Source: Terriglobia bacterium (lineage in GTDB: Bacteria; Acidobacteriota; Terriglobia; Terriglobales; Acidobacteriaceae). From it: a stretch of DNA of 64,000 nt. How positions within the stretch are numbered: position 1 is the first letter of the stretch; each line of letters begins with the position of its first letter. The DNA lies in NCBI GenBank assembly GCA_020072585.1, contig JAIQGL010000014.1:1-64000 (forward strand), read 5' to 3'. The position numbers were made by a program, and so were the translations under genes. Shown here in pieces: positions 62-47,028 of the stretch. Under the pieces are notes generated by a model. The model saw only the letters and a program-made list of their open reading frames with translations. It did not search any database and was not told where the DNA came from.

Positions 62-139
62 TTCTCCTCCTCCGCCCTGGCGGGCCATCTTAATGGAGAA
101 GTCTCATTCAGTCTGGACTATTTCTGGGGGAGCAGGTCA
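1..139 (-). mobile_element. IS3-family insertion sequence, one end (partial)
   Basis: The minus strand reads inward from about position 139 with TGACCTGCTCCCCCAG, an end that starts with TGA as IS3-family inverted repeats do. After roughly 75 bases comes a ribosome site and the start of a transposase OrfA. Only this end is in the window, so the other inverted repeat and the target duplication cannot be checked. The element lies against the 3' end of the neighbouring zinc-ribbon gene and supplies that gene's stop codon. The exact outer base is inferred, and the family call rests on the OrfA start. Confidence 0.7.
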
Positions 140-797
140 AACTCTGAGCAATCAAATGGTATTCGCCGCGGGCTTTCGGCGCATGGTAGCTGGCCCGAAA
201 AAATAAACGCGGCCCCACAGCAGTCGCTCCTAACGGCACCACGACACCGGCGTTGCTTTCTCTGATTTTCCAAACGAGGCTTTCTGGAGTTCCGCCACTC
301 GCTCTTGCGCCGACAATCACGGTTCCATCTGGTGGAACCGAAATAATCGACTGTTCGGCTACAAGAGCAATCGGCGCCGGTCGGGAAGAGAACCAAAAGC
401 TCCAGCTTAGGATGGCTAGGAAAGCAGCCAGCATTGGCGTCCCGGCCACGGCGAGGGTGCGTATCGTACGCCTCCTGCGATAGTCATCATAGCCCGTTGC
501 CGGAAGCTGGTTGCCAGTGGGAGCAAGTTTCACCTCCGCTACAACTGGCTGCCAACATCTGGGCTTTGAGAACAGAGCTGCTGCGAGGTCTATTTCCGCA
601 GCTGAAGGTTCGCTTGATCGATCGTTAACGGCACGTGCGAGGCGATTTCCGCAGCGCAAGCAGAAGTGGTGGCCTGTCGTGATTGAGGCCTTGCACACTG
701 CACATCGTTCCGGCGCTGAAGCTGCTTCTGCGGCGTTGCACGCCGTACAATGGGAGTTCCCGTCGCTGATTTTCCTACCACATTCATGGCACAGCAT
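108..797 (-). CDS. Double zinc-ribbon membrane protein with Ig-like domain, 3' end cut by an IS
   Basis: The protein has two four-cysteine zinc ribbons (C3, C6, C17, C20 and C32, C35, C46, C49), a low-complexity linker, one membrane segment at about residues 113-136, and an extracytoplasmic part resembling a bacterial Ig-like fold. The last good Ig-like residues are GEYHLIAQS. The following ten residues are encoded by the IS end and carry the stop, so the domain is truncated. The gene is divergent from the FtsK-like gene, which also starts with a zinc ribbon, so they may belong to one locus. Function is unknown. The start at 797 has no clear ribosome site. Confidence 0.6.
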   Translation of the reverse strand: MLCHECGRKISDGNSHCTACNAAEAASAPERCAVCKASITTGHHFCLRCGNRLARAVNDRSSEPSAAEIDLAAALFSKPRCWQPVVAEVKLAPTGNQLPATGYDDYRRRRTIRTLAVAGTPMLAAFLAILSWSFWFSSRPAPIALVAEQSIISVPPDGTVIVGARASGGTPESLVWKIRESNAGVVVPLGATAVGPRLFFRASYHAPKARGEYHLIAQSLTCSPRNSPD

Positions 798-1225: not shown

Positions 1226-4200
1226 GTGAGGATTTGTTCTGGATGCCATTATTTCAACCCCGACGGGACAGAGAACTGTACCCAATGTTCCCGGCCCGTG
1301 AACAACTGGGAAGATCTCTTAGGCGGCGTTACGACCGAGCCGAAGGGGTCCTGCACCTGGGATGAGCCGGTGCTAGGGATGCTTTCTCTAGTCGACAGCC
1401 TCCACGGTTCTTTCTCGACTCCTTTGGCCAATGCGGTGCGGGGAGTGATGCAGGATTTCAACAATGCTCAGCAAGCGGCGCAAAGCGAACGCGAGAAACG
1501 ACTCTCCATATTTCGCGCTGGCAAAGAAGCCATCGATCGCGAAATCGGAAAGCTTTCCACCGAGATCAATGAATTCCGTGTGGCAAACCAGAAGGTCATT
1601 AACGAGGCGGAAGCCATCTGTGGACAGATTCAACAACAGGTGATCGCCATCCGTACGTCGAGCCTGGAGTCGGTATCCAAGCGCGCAAACCCCTTCACTC
1701 CAGATTCAGCGGGTCTGGAACGTGCGGCAAAGGTCCGGGCACAGAAGGCTTGCCACGGCGCCGACAAGAATTCTCTTCTGGAAGCAGCGAAGTTGCATGC
1801 CGCGGATGCCAAAACACTGGCCACGAAGCTGACTGAAATGAAGGCGCCTCCCTACCCTGTGATTGCCATGCTGCCTAGCTTTGTGGCGTGCATCATCGTC
1901 GGCACCAGCGGCGGCCCGATGAATGCCGTTCTGATCAGCTTCGGCATTGTTTACCTGGCCGCAATGATCGCAGGTTATTTTTATTCCGGGCGCTCCATGG
2001 GATGGCGTCTGGAAGATACTCTGGTTGAAGCTTATGCTGCAGAAACCTCTGCTGCCGCCTACTCGGCCGGGGTTCGAAAAGAAAGATCGCGAGTCGTCGA
2101 GAATGCGGTCACGAACTCCGACGAAGCTAAAGCTGCGTTACAAACGCAGGTAGCGGAACTCGATCAGCGCGTTCGAGTGGCCGCCCTAACGCAATATGAG
2201 GCGGCAATCTCGCTGGCAAGCGCGCAACGAGATGCCGATCTTCAAATGTGCGCTGATGAATTTCGCCCGGTCCTGGTGGAAAGGCATCGGCTGGTGGAAA
2301 AATTCCAGAACGAACTTCACTCCATTGGCTCCGATTGGGAAGCCGAGGAGTGGCACAAATGGACATCGCCGCAGCTCGCGGCGGAAGCCGTACGAATCGG
2401 TACTCTGTCGTTAGCACTTAATCCCGTTCCGGTTTCAACTCCGGACTACGCTGCTCCCTTTCAATTCCCGGCGCTCTTGCCTCTGTGCTGGGGGCAGTCC
2501 CTTCTGATCACGCCACAGCTGGAAGCCAGGGCCCAGGCACTCGAATTTGCGCGTGCGCTGATGTTGCGTTTGCTCGCGACTTTTCCGGCGGGCAAGCTGC
2601 GCTTCATTCTGGTGGATCCTGTAGGCCTGGGACAAAATGTGGCAAGCTTTATGGAATTGGCTGATCACGACAAAGATCTCGTGACGAGCAAGGCGTGGTC
2701 GGAGCCTTCGCAGATAGAACGCCAGCTAACCGAGCTAACCAGCCACATCGAAACAGTCATTCAAACCTATCTCCGGAATGATTACGCTACCATTCAGGAC
2801 TACAACCGCAAGGCTGGCGAAGTAGCGGAAGCTTTTCGCGTGCTCATGGTGTTCGATTTCCCATCGAACTTCTCCGACTCAGCGGCGCAGCGTCTTTTGA
2901 GTATTGCCCAAAACGGCCCGCGATGCGGCGTCTTCTCCATCATCGTGCGCAGCCCGTTGAAAACAATGCCTTATGGATTCAAACTCGAGGACCTCATCCA
3001 GTGCTGCACTTGTGTCGATGTCACCGCGACAGGTCCCCATATCAATGTAATAGGGAACAATCTGATCAACCTTTTCCGCAAGCGCGCCGGCGGCGAGACG
3101 CATCCTGCACATGCTTCCGGCCAGGGGCTTGGCTCCTCCTTCAAGAGTTACAACCTCGAACTTGATACTGAGCCCCCTGAGTCGCTGAAAAAGCTCGTCA
3201 TTTCCACGGTCGGTGTCGGCGCCAAAGAAGGATCCAAAGTCGAAGTCCCATTCAAGCAGTTGCTAAAAATGGCGGGACTCAAAGAAAACGAATGGTGGAA
3301 GGCGTCAAGTGCGTCCAGGCTGGAAGTACCGCTCGGACCGAAAGGAACCCGCACCGTGCAGTCCCTCGTCCTGGGGGAAGGAACGGCTCATCATGGGCTG
3401 ATAGTGGGACGCACCGGATCAGGCAAGAGCAACCTCATGCACGTCATCATCACTACGCTTGCGCTGAAGTATTCTCCTTCCGAGGTGCAGCTCTATCTGA
3501 TCGACTTCAAGCAGGGAGTTGAGTTCAAGTGTTACGCGGCAAACAAACTGCCGCACGCCCTGACGATCGCGATTGAGAGTGAGCGCGAATTTGGGCTGAG
3601 CGTGCTGCGCCGCTTGCAGTCGGAAATGCAGGCTCGAGGAGAAAGGTTCCGCAACGCCAATTGCACCGGCATTGCGGAGTTCCGCGAGAAGACTGGCCAG
3701 GTGCTTCCGCGGATACTGCTGTTGGTTGACGAATTCCAGGAGTTCTTCAGTGAAGAGGATGCCCTCGGAACGGAAGCCAAGGCGATTCTGGATCAACTGG
3801 TTCGTCAGGCTCGGTACTCCGGAATTCATGTTCTGCTAGGTTCGCAAACGCTGTCGAGCGCCTCTCTGCAAGGCAGCACTTTAGGACAGATCGGGATCCG
3901 AATCGCACTTCAGTGCTCCGAAACCGACTCAAGGTTGCTGATGGCGGACGGGAACCTGGCTGCGCGCCGTCTCTCCCGCCCCGGTGAGGCGCTTTACAAC
4001 GCCCAGAACGGCCTCATCGAGGGCAACGAACTCTTCCAGGTCGCACTGTTTTCCGAACAAGACCGCGAATCGTACGTCGAGTCCGTGGTGAAATACGCCA
4101 GGGCGCGGATCGAAGAGCTGCCGGAACCGGTGGTATTTGAAGGCAACATGCCCGCGCCGTTGGATATGCAGGCGATCCGTGCACTGTACTCGCAGAAATC

Positions 4201-4963
4201 TTCTCTCCCGTACGGTTGCGCGCTGTTGGGATCACCCATCGAAATCAAAGACCTCACCGAGGTCCGTTTCCGCAAACAATCCGGATCCAACCTGCTGTTA
4301 GTGACCCGCGACGAAGCTACTGCGATGAGCCTGATCAGCAGCATCATTGTCAGCCTCCACAGCCAGGGTCCACTGGCCGGCTTCGTTATAGCTGACTTTG
4401 CGATGCCTGAGATGGAATGGTCCGGCCTGCTGGCCGGAATGGCCGAAACCTCCTCGCGTATCGTTCGCATCTACCACCGCCGCGATCTGCTGGAGAAGCT
4501 CCAGGACTACGCAAACATAGTGCGAAGTCCTCTACCTGCTTCGCCGGAAGTCTATTTCATCATCTTCGGGTTGCATCGCGCCCGCGATCTTCGCGACGAC
4601 TTTGAATCCTATGGCGGTGCCGAGCAGGACGCGCCGATGCAATTGTTCAATGAAATTCTCCGCGAAGGGCCGGAGATTGGTATTCACGTGATTACATGGT
4701 GCGATAGCATGGTCAACTTCGGGCGTTTGAACCGGTCCGCAATCCGCGAGTTTGGCTTCCGCGTCGCCGGACCCATGAGTTCCAGCGATTCCAACCAGCT
4801 TATCGGCGAAGAGGACGCTGCCAGGCTCCGCGACCACAATCGTGCCCTGCTTTACGATGAGGAGCGTCCAGGCGTGTTGGAGAAATTCAGGCCTTTCTTA
4901 TTGCCCAGCGCCGCGCAGCTTCGCGATGTCTTGACGGTTCAGGCTGATGCCACGCATGCTTGA
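1226..4963 (+). CDS. FtsK/SpoIIIE-type ATPase, EssC/EccC-like, with N-terminal zinc ribbon
   Basis: This is the probable motor of a type VII-like secretion system. Visible in order are a zinc ribbon (CSGC and CTQC, residues 4-22), a long charged helical or coiled-coil stretch (about 75-200), two membrane segments (about 210-255) and three nucleotide-binding-like modules. The first module (about 405-600) lacks a P-loop. The second has a perfect Walker A, GRTGSGKSN, at 728-736 and Walker B LLLVDEF with D835/E836. The third (about 1010-1235) has no P-loop. Three tandem modules after two membrane segments is the layout of EccC/EssC. FHA domains, found in EssC, are absent. The gene is followed directly by three WXG100-like genes, which fits EssC and its substrates. 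FtsK itself is unlikely because there is no gamma domain and there are three ATPase modules. Confidence 0.85.
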   Translation: MRICSGCHYFNPDGTENCTQCSRPVNNWEDLLGGVTTEPKGSCTWDEPVLGMLSLVDSLHGSFSTPLANAVRGVMQDFNNAQQAAQSEREKRLSIFRAGKEAIDREIGKLSTEINEFRVANQKVINEAEAICGQIQQQVIAIRTSSLESVSKRANPFTPDSAGLERAAKVRAQKACHGADKNSLLEAAKLHAADAKTLATKLTEMKAPPYPVIAMLPSFVACIIVGTSGGPMNAVLISFGIVYLAAMIAGYFYSGRSMGWRLEDTLVEAYAAETSAAAYSAGVRKERSRVVENAVTNSDEAKAALQTQVAELDQRVRVAALTQYEAAISLASAQRDADLQMCADEFRPVLVERHRLVEKFQNELHSIGSDWEAEEWHKWTSPQLAAEAVRIGTLSLALNPVPVSTPDYAAPFQFPALLPLCWGQSLLITPQLEARAQALEFARALMLRLLATFPAGKLRFILVDPVGLGQNVASFMELADHDKDLVTSKAWSEPSQIERQLTELTSHIETVIQTYLRNDYATIQDYNRKAGEVAEAFRVLMVFDFPSNFSDSAAQRLLSIAQNGPRCGVFSIIVRSPLKTMPYGFKLEDLIQCCTCVDVTATGPHINVIGNNLINLFRKRAGGETHPAHASGQGLGSSFKSYNLELDTEPPESLKKLVISTVGVGAKEGSKVEVPFKQLLKMAGLKENEWWKASSASRLEVPLGPKGTRTVQSLVLGEGTAHHGLIVGRTGSGKSNLMHVIITTLALKYSPSEVQLYLIDFKQGVEFKCYAANKLPHALTIAIESEREFGLSVLRRLQSEMQARGERFRNANCTGIAEFREKTGQVLPRILLLVDEFQEFFSEEDALGTEAKAILDQLVRQARYSGIHVLLGSQTLSSASLQGSTLGQIGIRIALQCSETDSRLLMADGNLAARRLSRPGEALYNAQNGLIEGNELFQVALFSEQDRESYVESVVKYARARIEELPEPVVFEGNMPAPLDMQAIRALYSQKSSLPYGCALLGSPIEIKDLTEVRFRKQSGSNLLLVTRDEATAMSLISSIIVSLHSQGPLAGFVIADFAMPEMEWSGLLAGMAETSSRIVRIYHRRDLLEKLQDYANIVRSPLPASPEVYFIIFGLHRARDLRDDFESYGGAEQDAPMQLFNEILREGPEIGIHVITWCDSMVNFGRLNRSAIREFGFRVAGPMSSSDSNQLIGEEDAARLRDHNRALLYDEERPGVLEKFRPFLLPSAAQLRDVLTVQADATHA

Positions 4964-4974
4964 GGAGTGAACCC

Positions 4975-5259
4975 ATGATTGCTCATTCAGATCCGGAACG
5001 GCTGCGTGAATTTGCCATGCAGCTCAAGGGCTACAACGATTTCATCGAGACCATGATGGCGTCAGTGCGCCAGGGAACCAAACGGCTGGGCCAATCGTGG
5101 AAAGACCCGCAATTCGATGAATTCGAGACTATCCTGGAGCGTACCAGGAATTTGCTGGTCAACTTCACCATGGAAACCAGAAAAACGGTGGAAGTGCTGA
5201 AGCGCGATGCGCAGGCGCTCGACGAGATCCACGCTGTCCGTCCCCCGGAAGGAATCTAA
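4975..5259 (+). CDS. WXG100-like small helical protein 1
   Basis: This 94-aa, mostly helical protein has a central tryptophan at residue 42 in LGQSWKDPQF, the place where WXG100 (EsxA-like) secretion substrates carry W-x-G between two helices. Here the turn reads W-K-D. Such proteins form helical hairpins and dimerise, and type VII ATPases export them. The frame is open from a TTG at 4960, but GAGGAG ahead of ATG 4975 makes that the likely start. The gene begins 11 bases after the ATPase stop, so the two are probably cotranslated. Assignment rests on length, helix pattern and context. Confidence 0.7.
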   Translation: MIAHSDPERLREFAMQLKGYNDFIETMMASVRQGTKRLGQSWKDPQFDEFETILERTRNLLVNFTMETRKTVEVLKRDAQALDEIHAVRPPEGI

Positions 5260-5261
5260 TC

Positions 5262-5531
5262 ATGCCGAAAGTCGTCATCGATCCTGAAGAGGTCCGGCGC
5301 TTTGTCAGTTTCCTGCAGACTCAGTCAGGAGAATTGCGCAAGCGCAAGAATTCCATTGAATCTTCCTTTCAGCGGCTCGGCGAATATTGGAAGGACGAAA
5401 AACACCGCCGCTTCGAAAATAACTTCGAGTACACCTCCAAGTTGCTGGATGAATTTCTGCGCAAAGCGGACGCCTACGTCGAATATTTGCGTAAGAAAGC
5501 CCACAAGGTGGACCGCTACCTGGATAACTGA
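5262..5531 (+). CDS. WXG100-like small helical protein 2
   Basis: This 89-aa, highly charged, helical protein has W43 in LGEYWKDEKH. The motif matches that of the preceding protein (LG-x-x-W-K-D), so the two look like a diverged pair that could form a heterodimer as EsxA/EsxB do. The ATG lies two bases after the previous stop. There is no signal peptide, as expected for type VII substrates. The classical C-terminal YxxxD/E export signal is not obvious, although the tail contains Tyr and Asp (DRYLDN). Confidence 0.7.
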   Translation: MPKVVIDPEEVRRFVSFLQTQSGELRKRKNSIESSFQRLGEYWKDEKHRRFENNFEYTSKLLDEFLRKADAYVEYLRKKAHKVDRYLDN

Positions 5532-5541
5532 GAGCCAAGCC

Positions 5542-6504
5542 GTGAATCCTTCCGCCGATGTCCGCAGCCTCGAGCGGCTCGAGCAGTTTGATGCCGCGCT
5601 GGCCGAATTCATCAAGAGATTTGGTCGGCACGTTTCCGCTCTGGAGGCCCAGCATTCCCGGGCATGCGATTACATCGAGCGAAGGCACACTGCGCTGTCG
5701 TCCCGCGTTGCCGACCTGGAGGAACTGCTCTATGCGGCCGATGAAGAGACTGATACTTATGAGATAGAACAGGAACTGGAGGAAGCTCGTTCCCAGTTGG
5801 AGGAGGCCATCGACTGCGAGCTGCGGGCAAACGAGGCCCGAGCACGCTATCGTCGCGAAGCAGCACGCATTCACGGCCTTTTACAATCCGGCATTCCCCA
5901 GGGTCGGTCTTTTCTGCAACGGAAGATCGAGGTACTCCACGAGATTCTGGCCGTTGCCATGCCCGAAAGCTCGAGTCCAGGCGCTTCCACCGGGGATGTG
6001 TCTGCCGGTGTGGCCGCTGCCCCATCTTCGCCGGCCGGCGCAGCGGCTGCTCCCAGGATGATCGTCGAACCACGGCCGTATTCCTCGATCATGGAGTTTT
6101 ATCCACTGCCGCAGGGATTCCGATGGGTTCGGCTCTCTGAGATCGCACCCTCCGAATTGGAACGTGCAGGCACCATCGCCGAATCCGGCAAGGAATCCTA
6201 TGCGAATATGAAGAAAGGCTTCGCCATTCTCCAGCAGGAGATATTGCCGGCCTTGAGCAAGATGTCTTCCGACCAGGCCTACGAATATTTCCGTGAGCAA
6301 GACGTGAGTGCACCACGTGCGGACGGTCTGTTTCGCCAGAACGTCTTTTCTGCGTTCTTTGGCCGGCGGGCGCCGGAGGTCATAAGACTGGAAAAGCGCC
6401 GCAGCGACGGTTCTTACTCCGTCGTCAATGGATATCATCGCATCCATGTGGCCATGGAACTCGGCTGGAAGGCCATACCGGCGGATGCCGTCGAGGTCGC
6501 CTGA
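5542..6504 (+). CDS. Coiled-coil protein with C-terminal ParB-like domain, possible type VII cargo
   Basis: The GTG at 5542 is the best start of this 320-aa protein, because the frame upstream overlaps the previous gene. Residues 1-130 are helical and acidic, a WXG/LXG-like carrier region. An Ala/Pro/Ser-rich linker follows (about 150-180). The C-terminus ends with VVNGYHRIHVAMELGWKAIP, which resembles the G-x-R-R-x-x-A-x-x-x-G-x-x-x-x-P box of ParB/sulfiredoxin-like domains; these also occur as C-terminal domains of polymorphic toxins. Carrier, linker and compact C-terminal domain between WXG100 genes suggest a secreted effector, but activity is unproven. No immunity gene is evident unless the next small gene serves as one. 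Confidence 0.6.
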   Translation: MNPSADVRSLERLEQFDAALAEFIKRFGRHVSALEAQHSRACDYIERRHTALSSRVADLEELLYAADEETDTYEIEQELEEARSQLEEAIDCELRANEARARYRREAARIHGLLQSGIPQGRSFLQRKIEVLHEILAVAMPESSSPGASTGDVSAGVAAAPSSPAGAAAAPRMIVEPRPYSSIMEFYPLPQGFRWVRLSEIAPSELERAGTIAESGKESYANMKKGFAILQQEILPALSKMSSDQAYEYFREQDVSAPRADGLFRQNVFSAFFGRRAPEVIRLEKRRSDGSYSVVNGYHRIHVAMELGWKAIPADAVEVA

Positions 6505-6719
6505 TGCCGGGGAGAACGGAGTTGGGGGAATTGGAATCATTGATTCAGGCATTGCGGGCGGATTGGGCAGAAGTATGCCTTGTTTGGCGCGACAGCGTCC
6601 ACGAAGAATTCAAGGGGCAGTTCTGGGACAATTGGGATGCTATGCTTTTAGACTTCATCAATGTTGCAAATGACAGTGCAGACGAGATGGAGGATCAATT
6701 AAGGACATTGAAAGACTAG
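6504..6719 (+). CDS. WXG100-like small helical protein 3
   Basis: The ATG at 6504 overlaps the TGA of the preceding gene (TGATG), indicating translational coupling. The 71-aa product is acidic and helical with tryptophans and the box CLVWRDSVHEEF at residues 26-37. That is the same W-[K/R]-D turn as in the two proteins before it. It may be a partner or chaperone of the ParB-domain protein, or a third secreted hairpin. It is the last gene of the operon; no terminator was seen just after it. Confidence 0.6.
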   Translation: MPGRTELGELESLIQALRADWAEVCLVWRDSVHEEFKGQFWDNWDAMLLDFINVANDSADEMEDQLRTLKD

Positions 6720-46952: not shown

Positions 46953-47028
46953 TGGTGGAGCTAGTCGGGATCGAACCGACGACCTCATCGTTGCGAACGA
47001 TGCGCTCTCCCAGCTGAGCTATAGCCCC
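46953..47028 (-). tRNA. tRNA-Ala(CGC)
   Basis: The minus strand folds as a full cloverleaf: acceptor GGGGCTA/TAGCTCC with the G3-U70 pair that specifies alanine, D-arm GCTC/GAGC, anticodon loop TTCGCAA (anticodon CGC) on a five-pair stem, T-arm GTCGG/CCGAC with TTCGATC, and an encoded CCA. Its 3' end faces the accessory island, the orientation expected if a tRNA 3' end had served as an integration site. Confidence 0.97.

What the first reader, a model, noticed from the sequence alone, without database searches (positions are those of the whole stretch)
1226..6719. Type VII-like secretion locus in a presumed Gram-negative acidobacterium
A single EssC/EccC-like ATPase with two membrane segments and three ATPase modules is followed without gaps by three small helical proteins with a central Trp and a carrier-linker-domain protein. 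That is the minimal ATPase plus WXG100 logic of type VII systems, which are best known from Gram-positive bacteria. No EsaA/EssA/EssB or EccB/D homologs are visible. It would be a reduced or different system.
Basis: partly seen in the sequence, partly recalled or inferred. Interest (0 to 1): 0.75.

Follow-up and report, generated by a model that had tools for sequence, protein, structure and literature searches.

The report
Gram-negative type VII-like export cassette
A soil acidobacterium carries a stripped-down relative of the type VII protein export machine, with a helical carrier protein whose tail differs from species to species, suggesting that this export logic may also work in bacteria with two membranes.

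Summary
Window 1226-6719 is a nearly gap-free cluster: a two-TM ATPase with three tandem FtsK/HerA-type modules (one Walker A, in the middle), two WXG100-type proteins, a carrier-linker-domain protein and a third, shorter WXG-type protein. Relatives occur in Planctomycetota, Chloroflexota, Acidobacteriota, Pseudomonadota, UASB270 and a Rhodococcus plasmid. Of 85 ATPase loci, 68 carry WXG-type genes and 62 the carrier. The signature is W-x-D, not W-x-G.

AlphaFold models the window carrier as a long helical hairpin, a disordered linker and a folded C-terminal domain, ParB/sulfiredoxin-like by weak but consistent matches. In relatives the C-terminus differs: ParB-like, Imm33-like, other, or only a tail. 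That resembles LXG effectors with their WXG-like partners.

Best reading: a reduced T7SS-like exporter with a dedicated substrate cassette. Export itself is inferred. The kind was footnoted in 2012 (PMC3482391: apparently mobile T7SS, three-domain ATPase, only the middle active, in Gram-negative lineages). The carrier, the W-x-D signature, the acidobacterial member and, in two relatives, a membrane partner diversified by a retroelement did not turn up in the papers searched. New variant of a known kind.

The parts
1226..4963 (+). EccC/EssC-related membrane ATPase, 1245 aa: N-terminal zinc ribbon (by eye), helical region, 2 TM, helical region, three FtsK/HerA-type modules
   Evidence: (FtsK_SpoIIIE 1.4e-33; EssC/EccC NCBIfam 3.7e-33 and 9e-33, far below their equivalog cut-offs)
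1859..1981 (+). two predicted transmembrane segments (aa 212-230, 234-252)
   Evidence: Hydropathy scan
3407..3430 (+). the only Walker A (GRTGSGKS, aa 728-735), in the middle module
   Evidence: Sequence; one match per protein in 84 of 84 family ATPases
4975..5259 (+). WXG100-type protein a (94 aa, W-K-D motif)
   Evidence: PF06013 9.3e-4 (with the TTG start); family profile A7
5262..5531 (+). WXG100-type protein b (89 aa, W-K-D motif)
   Evidence: PF06013 1.6e-5; the one genome-wide match
5542..6504 (+). carrier protein (320 aa): helical hairpin aa 7-137, disordered linker about aa 142-173, ParB/sulfiredoxin-like domain aa 182-320 (motif NGYHR)
   Evidence: AlphaFold mean pLDDT 87.2, pTM 0.49; Foldseek ParB/Srx/Noc, E 0.09-0.2; profile A12 hits only ParB/Noc/SbnI in the PDB, best 8e-4
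6504..6719 (+). short WXG-type protein c (71 aa, W-R-D motif)
   Evidence: PF06013 0.11; family profile A8 with invariant W and D
108..797 (-). divergent neighbour: double zinc ribbon plus one TM protein; a zinc-ribbon+TM protein stands in the same divergent place in G008; membership of the system uncertain
   Evidence: DZR 3.5e-6; TM in both; G008 counterpart L035:15005-16459 (by eye)

Best explanation
A reduced, type VII-like export module with one dedicated substrate cassette. [quoted passage not shown] The carrier is a long helical hairpin joined by a flexible linker to a C-terminal domain; it is encoded between or beside two kinds of WXG-type proteins. Mechanism (inferred): the WXG-type proteins pack against the carrier hairpin as the Lap/WXG partners of LXG effectors do, the helical bundle docks on the ATPase, and the middle motor drives the complex, with its C-terminal domain as cargo, across the inner membrane. 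In the window the cargo is a ParB/sulfiredoxin-like domain that keeps the invariant G-x-H-R motif, so a nucleotide-dependent enzyme or a nuclease acting in the recipient compartment is the best guess. How an outer membrane would be crossed is unknown.
For: ATPase profile against the PDB: EccC of Thermomonospora curvata 158 bits, EccC5 118, YukB 110, FtsK 63, TcpA 62. NCBIfam: EssC/EccC 90-114 bits against FtsK 36 for the window; in 7 of 7 relatives the T7 models lead and FtsK is lower or unlisted at 1e-5. Foldseek rank 1 is EccC 4nh0, E 3.6e-32 over 976 columns, though TM-score is only 0.40 and rmsd 16.5. WXG family profile A7 to HP0062/EsxB/EsxA. Window carrier model: two long helices, linker, folded domain. 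Different C-termini on one conserved N-terminus. Co-occurrence: WXG in 68 of 85 loci, carrier in 62 of 85 (the profiles were built from members of these loci), no hit in control sequence. Garrett et al. 2024 describe candidate substrates next to one or two small WXG100-related genes, likely Laps (PMC11217815, passages). One UASB270 relative encodes a WXG domain fused to a long C-terminal region (L062:6147-7100, WXG100 4.5e-8).
Confidence: 0.6

Rival explanations
1. A membrane-tethered intracellular conflict or stress module: the FtsK/HerA-type motor and the ParB-like (or Imm33-like) domain act inside the cell, on DNA or nucleotides, and the WXG-type proteins only assemble the complex. Nothing is exported.
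For: The middle motor matches DptH motors at least as well as EssC D1; PADLOC SspH 9e-29. The ParB-like domain recurs in Acidobacteriota, Chloroflexota, UASB270, a betaproteobacterium and Rhodococcus, so it looks retained rather than swapped there. The Rhodococcus ATPase has an N-terminal TerD domain and lies beside TerD and DUF475 genes.
Against: Whole-protein and multi-module similarity is to EccC/EssC. WXG100-type proteins and a carrier-linker-variable-domain architecture are hallmarks of T7 substrates (recalled). PADLOC hits of the window ATPase are confined to the motor module, aa 715-929.
Confidence: 0.25
2. An accessory of the contractile injection system (eCIS) encoded next door (8266-34387): the ATPase/WXG cluster loads or regulates it.
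For: Adjacent in the window; sheath, tube, Pvc16-type, AAA+ and eCIS_core proteins are annotated there.
Against: In the congeneric genome the same five genes and a zinc-ribbon protein lie between a nucleotide-sugar dehydrogenase and rho (my readings), and I recognised no tail gene in the stretches listed. Of seven ORF clusters shared by 5 or more of 84 loci none looks like a tail gene.
Confidence: 0.04
3. A coincidental assembly: a divergent FtsK-type DNA translocase beside unrelated small helical ORFs.
For: Pfam WXG100 scores in the window are below the curated cut-off; short helical proteins can match coiled-coil profiles by chance.
Against: Synteny and conservation across phyla, invariant W and D in 47 and 44 members, profile hits to Esx structures, empty controls.
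Confidence: 0.02

Closest known systems
Mobile T7SS with a distinct YueA-like ATPase (Zhang et al. 2012, PMC3482391, Table 1 footnote 6; passage seen)
   Different: The footnote speaks of solo WXG domains and does not mention a carrier with variable C-terminus, two kinds of WXG-type partners, a W-x-D signature, Acidobacteria or a diversified membrane partner; the rest of that long paper was seen only in passages
T7SSb (EssC, EsxA, LXG effectors with Lap partners) and T7SSc-j (Garrett et al. 2024, PMC11217815; passages seen)
   Same: FtsK-related membrane ATPase, WXG100-type proteins, candidate substrate with helical targeting domain flanked by small WXG-like genes; FHA protein nearby in one relative (L054)
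   Different: Described in Bacillota and Actinomycetota, with four NTPase domains; here three modules, one Walker A, no EssB or EsaA found, no YukD at the locus
T7SSa / ESX (EccC, Esx pairs)
   Same: Best Foldseek match is EccC 4nh0; tandem WXG-type genes
   Different: No PE/PPE or mycosin among the families found in ten window genes; EccB not found but its control did not ring; W-x-D instead of W-x-G
FtsK and DptH/SspH motors
   Different: FtsK and DptH/SspH rows form supported clades apart from this family; the multi-module profile scores EccC far above FtsK
ParB/Noc/SbnI/sulfiredoxin superfamily (carrier C-terminus)
   Same: All 11 PDB hits of the domain profile are ParB, Noc or SbnI; Foldseek gives ParB, Srx, Noc
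   Different: Weak scores (best E 8e-4; Foldseek E 0.09); fused to a T7-like carrier

Membership tests
WXG100 / ESAT-6 superfamily (small proteins a and b) | Match to the WXG100 profile | tested here: met
   44 of 47 family members at E<=1e-3, best 3.4e-11; window members below the curated cut-off
WXG100 / ESAT-6 superfamily (small proteins a and b) | W-x-G motif at the hairpin turn | tested here: not met
   W and D invariant in 47 of 47 aligned members: W-x-D
WXG100 / ESAT-6 superfamily (small proteins a and b) | Helical-hairpin fold | tested here: inconclusive
   Full-length profile homology to HP0062/EsxB/EsxA structures implies it; no structure was predicted for the small proteins
WXG100 superfamily (small protein c) | Match to the WXG100 profile | tested here: inconclusive
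   5 of 44 members at E<=0.01; PDB EsxA 4.8e-4; window member no hit at 0.01
T7SS core (EccC/EssC) | Membrane ATPase with two TM segments and tandem FtsK-type modules, closer to EccC/EssC than FtsK over the whole protein | tested here: met
   single-module comparisons do not show it
T7SS core (EccC/EssC) | ATPase branches with EccC/EssC in a tree | tested here: inconclusive
   Own clade 98/97 (23 of 84 family rows plus Rhodococcus); EccC/EssC D1 on long branches, not resolved
T7SS core (EccC/EssC) | Four NTPase domains | tested here: not met
   Three modules read from the model; one Walker A
T7SSb | EssB (YukC) | tested here: not met
   PF10140 absent genome-wide, control B. subtilis rings
T7SSb | EsaA | tested here: not met
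   TIGR03929 absent genome-wide, control rings
T7SSb | EsaB/YukD at the locus | tested here: not met
   One YukD-type protein, but on another contig beside a ThiF gene
T7SSa | EccB | tested here: inconclusive
   No match, but no control genome rang
T7SSa and T7SSb | EccD, EccE, MycP; EssA | not tested
   No genome-wide search made
Mobile three-module T7SS of Zhang et al. 2012 | WXG-type genes with an ATPase of three FtsK/HerA modules, only the middle active | tested here: met
   (activity judged by Walker A only)
Secretion system (any) | ATPase-dependent export of the WXG proteins or carrier | not testable with these tools
   Needs experiment
LXG-type polymorphic effector (carrier) | Conserved helical N-terminus, linker, variable C-terminal domain | tested here: met
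   Model of the window carrier; alignment and domains of 49 carriers
LXG-type polymorphic effector (carrier) | Match to the LXG profile | tested here: inconclusive
   No LXG family among the Pfam families listed for 49 carriers at E<=0.01

The most novel reading that the evidence does not exclude
A contact-targeted effector-delivery branch of the type VII lineage, spread through Planctomycetota, Chloroflexota and Acidobacteriota: one active motor exports a carrier-plus-WXG complex with exchangeable C-terminal domains, and a membrane partner displays a target-recognition domain that in two relatives (L074, Chloroflexi; L073, untitled, branching with Chloroflexota-type rows) is hypermutated by a diversity-generating retroelement (TR/VR mismatches at template adenines 18 of 18 in L073 and 17 of 19 in L074). 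It would be a diderm-compatible T7SS subtype with evolvable targeting. Outward display and export are inferred.
Probability: 0.2. Interest if true: 0.87.

Novelty: new variant of a known kind. Interest (0 to 1): 0.6.

Why it matters
The T7SS papers whose passages I saw place these systems mainly in Gram-positive phyla (PMC11217815, PMC3935865). A compact, widespread cassette with one active motor and its own substrate in LPS-bearing bacteria would ask how T7 export copes with a second membrane, what the minimum T7 machine is, and whether the extra EccC/EssC modules and accessory membrane proteins are later additions. It also names cultured hosts (Singulisphaera acidiphila, Limnoglobus roseus; non-pathogenic as far as I recall) in which export can be tested.

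Tried and rejected
Link to the neighbouring eCIS: rejected as conserved, because the congeneric copy lies elsewhere without tail genes that I recognised in the stretches listed and none of the seven ORF clusters shared by 5 or more of 84 loci looks like a tail gene.

Counting all FtsK-profile hits as relatives: rejected. Most matches look like FtsK translocases; G007, G230 and G253 are treated as DptH-like motors, from a DndB/cysteine-desulfurase-like neighbourhood read by eye in G007, large size and clade.

Settling kinship by the middle module alone: inconclusive. Only the multi-module comparison favours EccC/EssC. The tree used 23 of 84 family ATPases plus Rhodococcus; reference domain hits under 25 bits or shorter than 140 residues were dropped.

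Retroelement in L082: no template repeat found (best 44 of 103). Candidate immunity genes: small ORFs lie between WXG-c and the ATPase in some relatives but no family was tested. Literature: searches; no open-licence paper found there describes the carrier or the retroelement link. All papers were seen in passages or listings only, none whole. Subscription papers, such as Sutcliffe 2011 (recalled), were not readable.
Full report
Check of the observation. The ATPase matches FtsK_SpoIIIE at 1.4e-33 and the EssC and EccCa models at 3.7e-33 and 9e-33, far below their full-length equivalog cut-offs. Two hydrophobic segments precede the motor. In the 6.9 Mb genome the WXG100 profile has one match at E<=0.001, inside this cluster and below the family cut-off. 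The genome has three FtsK_SpoIIIE matches: one strong, taken as chromosomal FtsK, this ATPase, and one weak. LptD is present, with controls E. coli and Caulobacter ringing, so the host is very likely a diderm.

Conservation. G008 has the same order, ATPase, WXG-a, WXG-b, carrier, WXG-c, and a divergent zinc-ribbon membrane protein, with identities of 64, 70, 61, 53 and 41% for the five. It lies in a different neighbourhood in which I recognised no tail gene. In 61 genomes (own and 60 relatives) only the own genome and G008 match over the full length. In 396 phylum genomes 13 reach E<=1e-15, of which I read 5 (G000, G133, G309, G340, G403) as family members by coverage. In 399 class genomes only the own genome passes E<=1e-60. 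The system is thus rare and patchy in Acidobacteriota.

A scan of genome contigs with six ATPases gave 306 relatives at tblastn E<=1e-3, 80 of them fetched. By my count of record titles 60 of the 80 are Planctomycetota and 12 Chloroflexota; the rest are UASB270 (2), Acidobacteria (2, the same contigs as G008 and G133), Pseudomonadota (2), one untitled and one titled Nealsonbacteria. A Rhodococcus plasmid carries another member. Among 85 distinct loci, 68 encode WXG-type proteins and 62 the carrier at E<=0.01, with profiles built from members of these loci; of the 17 without WXG, 14 have under 2 kb upstream of the ATPase match and 3 (L106, L126, L130) have 10 kb. The order read in planctomycetes is WXG-a, carrier, WXG-c, ATPase. 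Control sequence of 281 kb gave no hit.

The small proteins. WXG-a/b members align over 90 profile positions with W43 and D45 invariant in 47 of 47; WXG-c members have W28 and D30 invariant in 44 of 44. The Gly of W-x-G is replaced by Asp. Profile A7 hits 3fx7, HP0062, EsxB and EsxA structures (2.5e-13 to 1e-7); A8 hits EsxA at 4.8e-4. No small protein was folded.

The carrier. AlphaFold of the window protein on a 26-row alignment gives mean pLDDT 87.2 (pTM 0.49): helices 7-65 and 73-137, a disordered stretch around 142-173, and a folded alpha/beta domain 182-320. Foldseek's top rows are ParB, sulfiredoxin and Noc at weak E-values (0.09-0.2). A profile of nine such domains hits 11 PDB sequences at E<=5, all ParB, Noc or SbnI, best 8e-4; G, H and R of the G-x-H-R motif are invariant. 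Among 49 carriers, 9 have this domain, 8 an Imm33-like domain by Pfam at E<=0.01, three have other domains known only from motifs (L072, L074, L094), and most of the remaining 29, by eye, end in Pro/Ser/Ala-rich tails. A UASB270 locus also has a WXG domain fused to a long C-terminus (L062:6147-7100).

The ATPase. Each of 84 family ATPases has exactly one Walker A. The core model (pLDDT 83.9, pTM 0.73) shows three RecA-like modules by my reading, and EccC 4nh0 is Foldseek's rank 1. Single-motor comparison is ambiguous: FtsK superposes better, DptH motors score as high as or higher than EssC D1, and the family is its own clade. The control of own FtsK against NCBIfam failed on coordinates and was not repeated. 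In L068, L072, L073, L074 and L082 a separate protein has a coiled coil, one TM and WD40 or FGE-sulfatase domains (Pfam for L072, L073 and L074), and the L068 ATPase, the only one of these scanned, shows no TM. In G309 a separate protein has TM segments, FHA and TPR. In L073 and L074 the FGE protein is the variable protein of a diversity-generating retroelement: template and variable repeats differ at template A in 18 of 18 and 17 of 19 positions, with a reverse transcriptase beside (Pfam in L073; by motif in L074). L082 has no such repeat. That the variable domain faces outwards is inferred from positive charges before the TM segment.

Mechanism. Shown or modelled: gene set, folds, conservation, single Walker A. 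Inferred: that WXG-type proteins bind the carrier hairpin, that the complex is exported, that the C-terminal domain is cargo. The pattern matches LXG effectors with Lap partners; Garrett et al. note candidate substrates beside one or two WXG100-related genes, likely Laps (PMC11217815, passages). The main rival is an intracellular, membrane-tethered conflict module.

Known literature. Zhang et al. 2012 (PMC3482391; passages) state in a table footnote that several Gram-negative lineages have solo WXG domains with a distinct ATPase of three HerA/FtsK domains, only the middle active, apparently mobile T7SS. The family here fits. A WXG100 survey found almost only Actinobacteria and Firmicutes with a few Chloroflexi (PMC3935865, passages); PMC4010439 mentions sporadic homologues in Proteobacteria (passage). 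PMC7159879 holds no occurrence of WXG, ESX or T7SS. So the ATPase+WXG kind is known, while the carrier, the W-x-D signature, the acidobacterial member and the retroelement link did not turn up in searches (open-licence papers only, read in passages).

Verdict. Real, related to T7SS, in a diderm, a new variant of a scarcely described kind. Interest 0.6.

Noticed in passing
window 8266-34387 (- strand): A contractile injection system (eCIS): sheath, gp19-type tube, Pvc16_N protein, AAA+ ATPase with winged-helix domain, Baseplate_J protein, DUF6519 protein, two eCIS_core proteins (one with a 3D domain).
   Followed up: partly
L073:1917-4739 and L074:4859-7912: Diversity-generating retroelements whose variable protein is the coil+TM+FGE-sulfatase partner inside the T7-like loci; TR/VR mismatches at template A 18/18 and 17/19.
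   Followed up: partly
L150 (G000:C36:140146-145891): Same genome, other contig: ubiquitin-like conjugation-type cluster with YukD-type Ub-like protein, ThiF (E1-like) protein and, by my reading of the sequences, JAB-type peptidase and E2-like protein.
   Followed up: partly
L140:6709-14514 (Rhodococcus plasmid): Family ATPase with N-terminal TerD domain, beside TerD and DUF475 genes.
   Followed up: no
L062:6147-7100: WXG100 domain fused to a long C-terminal region of unknown family, next to the cassette; candidate second substrate.
   Followed up: no
L101, L133 and other Phycisphaerales-type carriers: Imm33-like domain at the C-terminus of the carrier in 8 of 49, an immunity-type fold in an effector-type position.
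   Followed up: no
L054:9590-12142 (G309): Separate partner protein with TM segments, FHA and TPR repeats and, by eye, a zinc ribbon; FHA is typical of EssC-type systems.
   Followed up: no
window 46953-47028 (- strand): tRNA-Ala (anticodon cgc).
   Followed up: no
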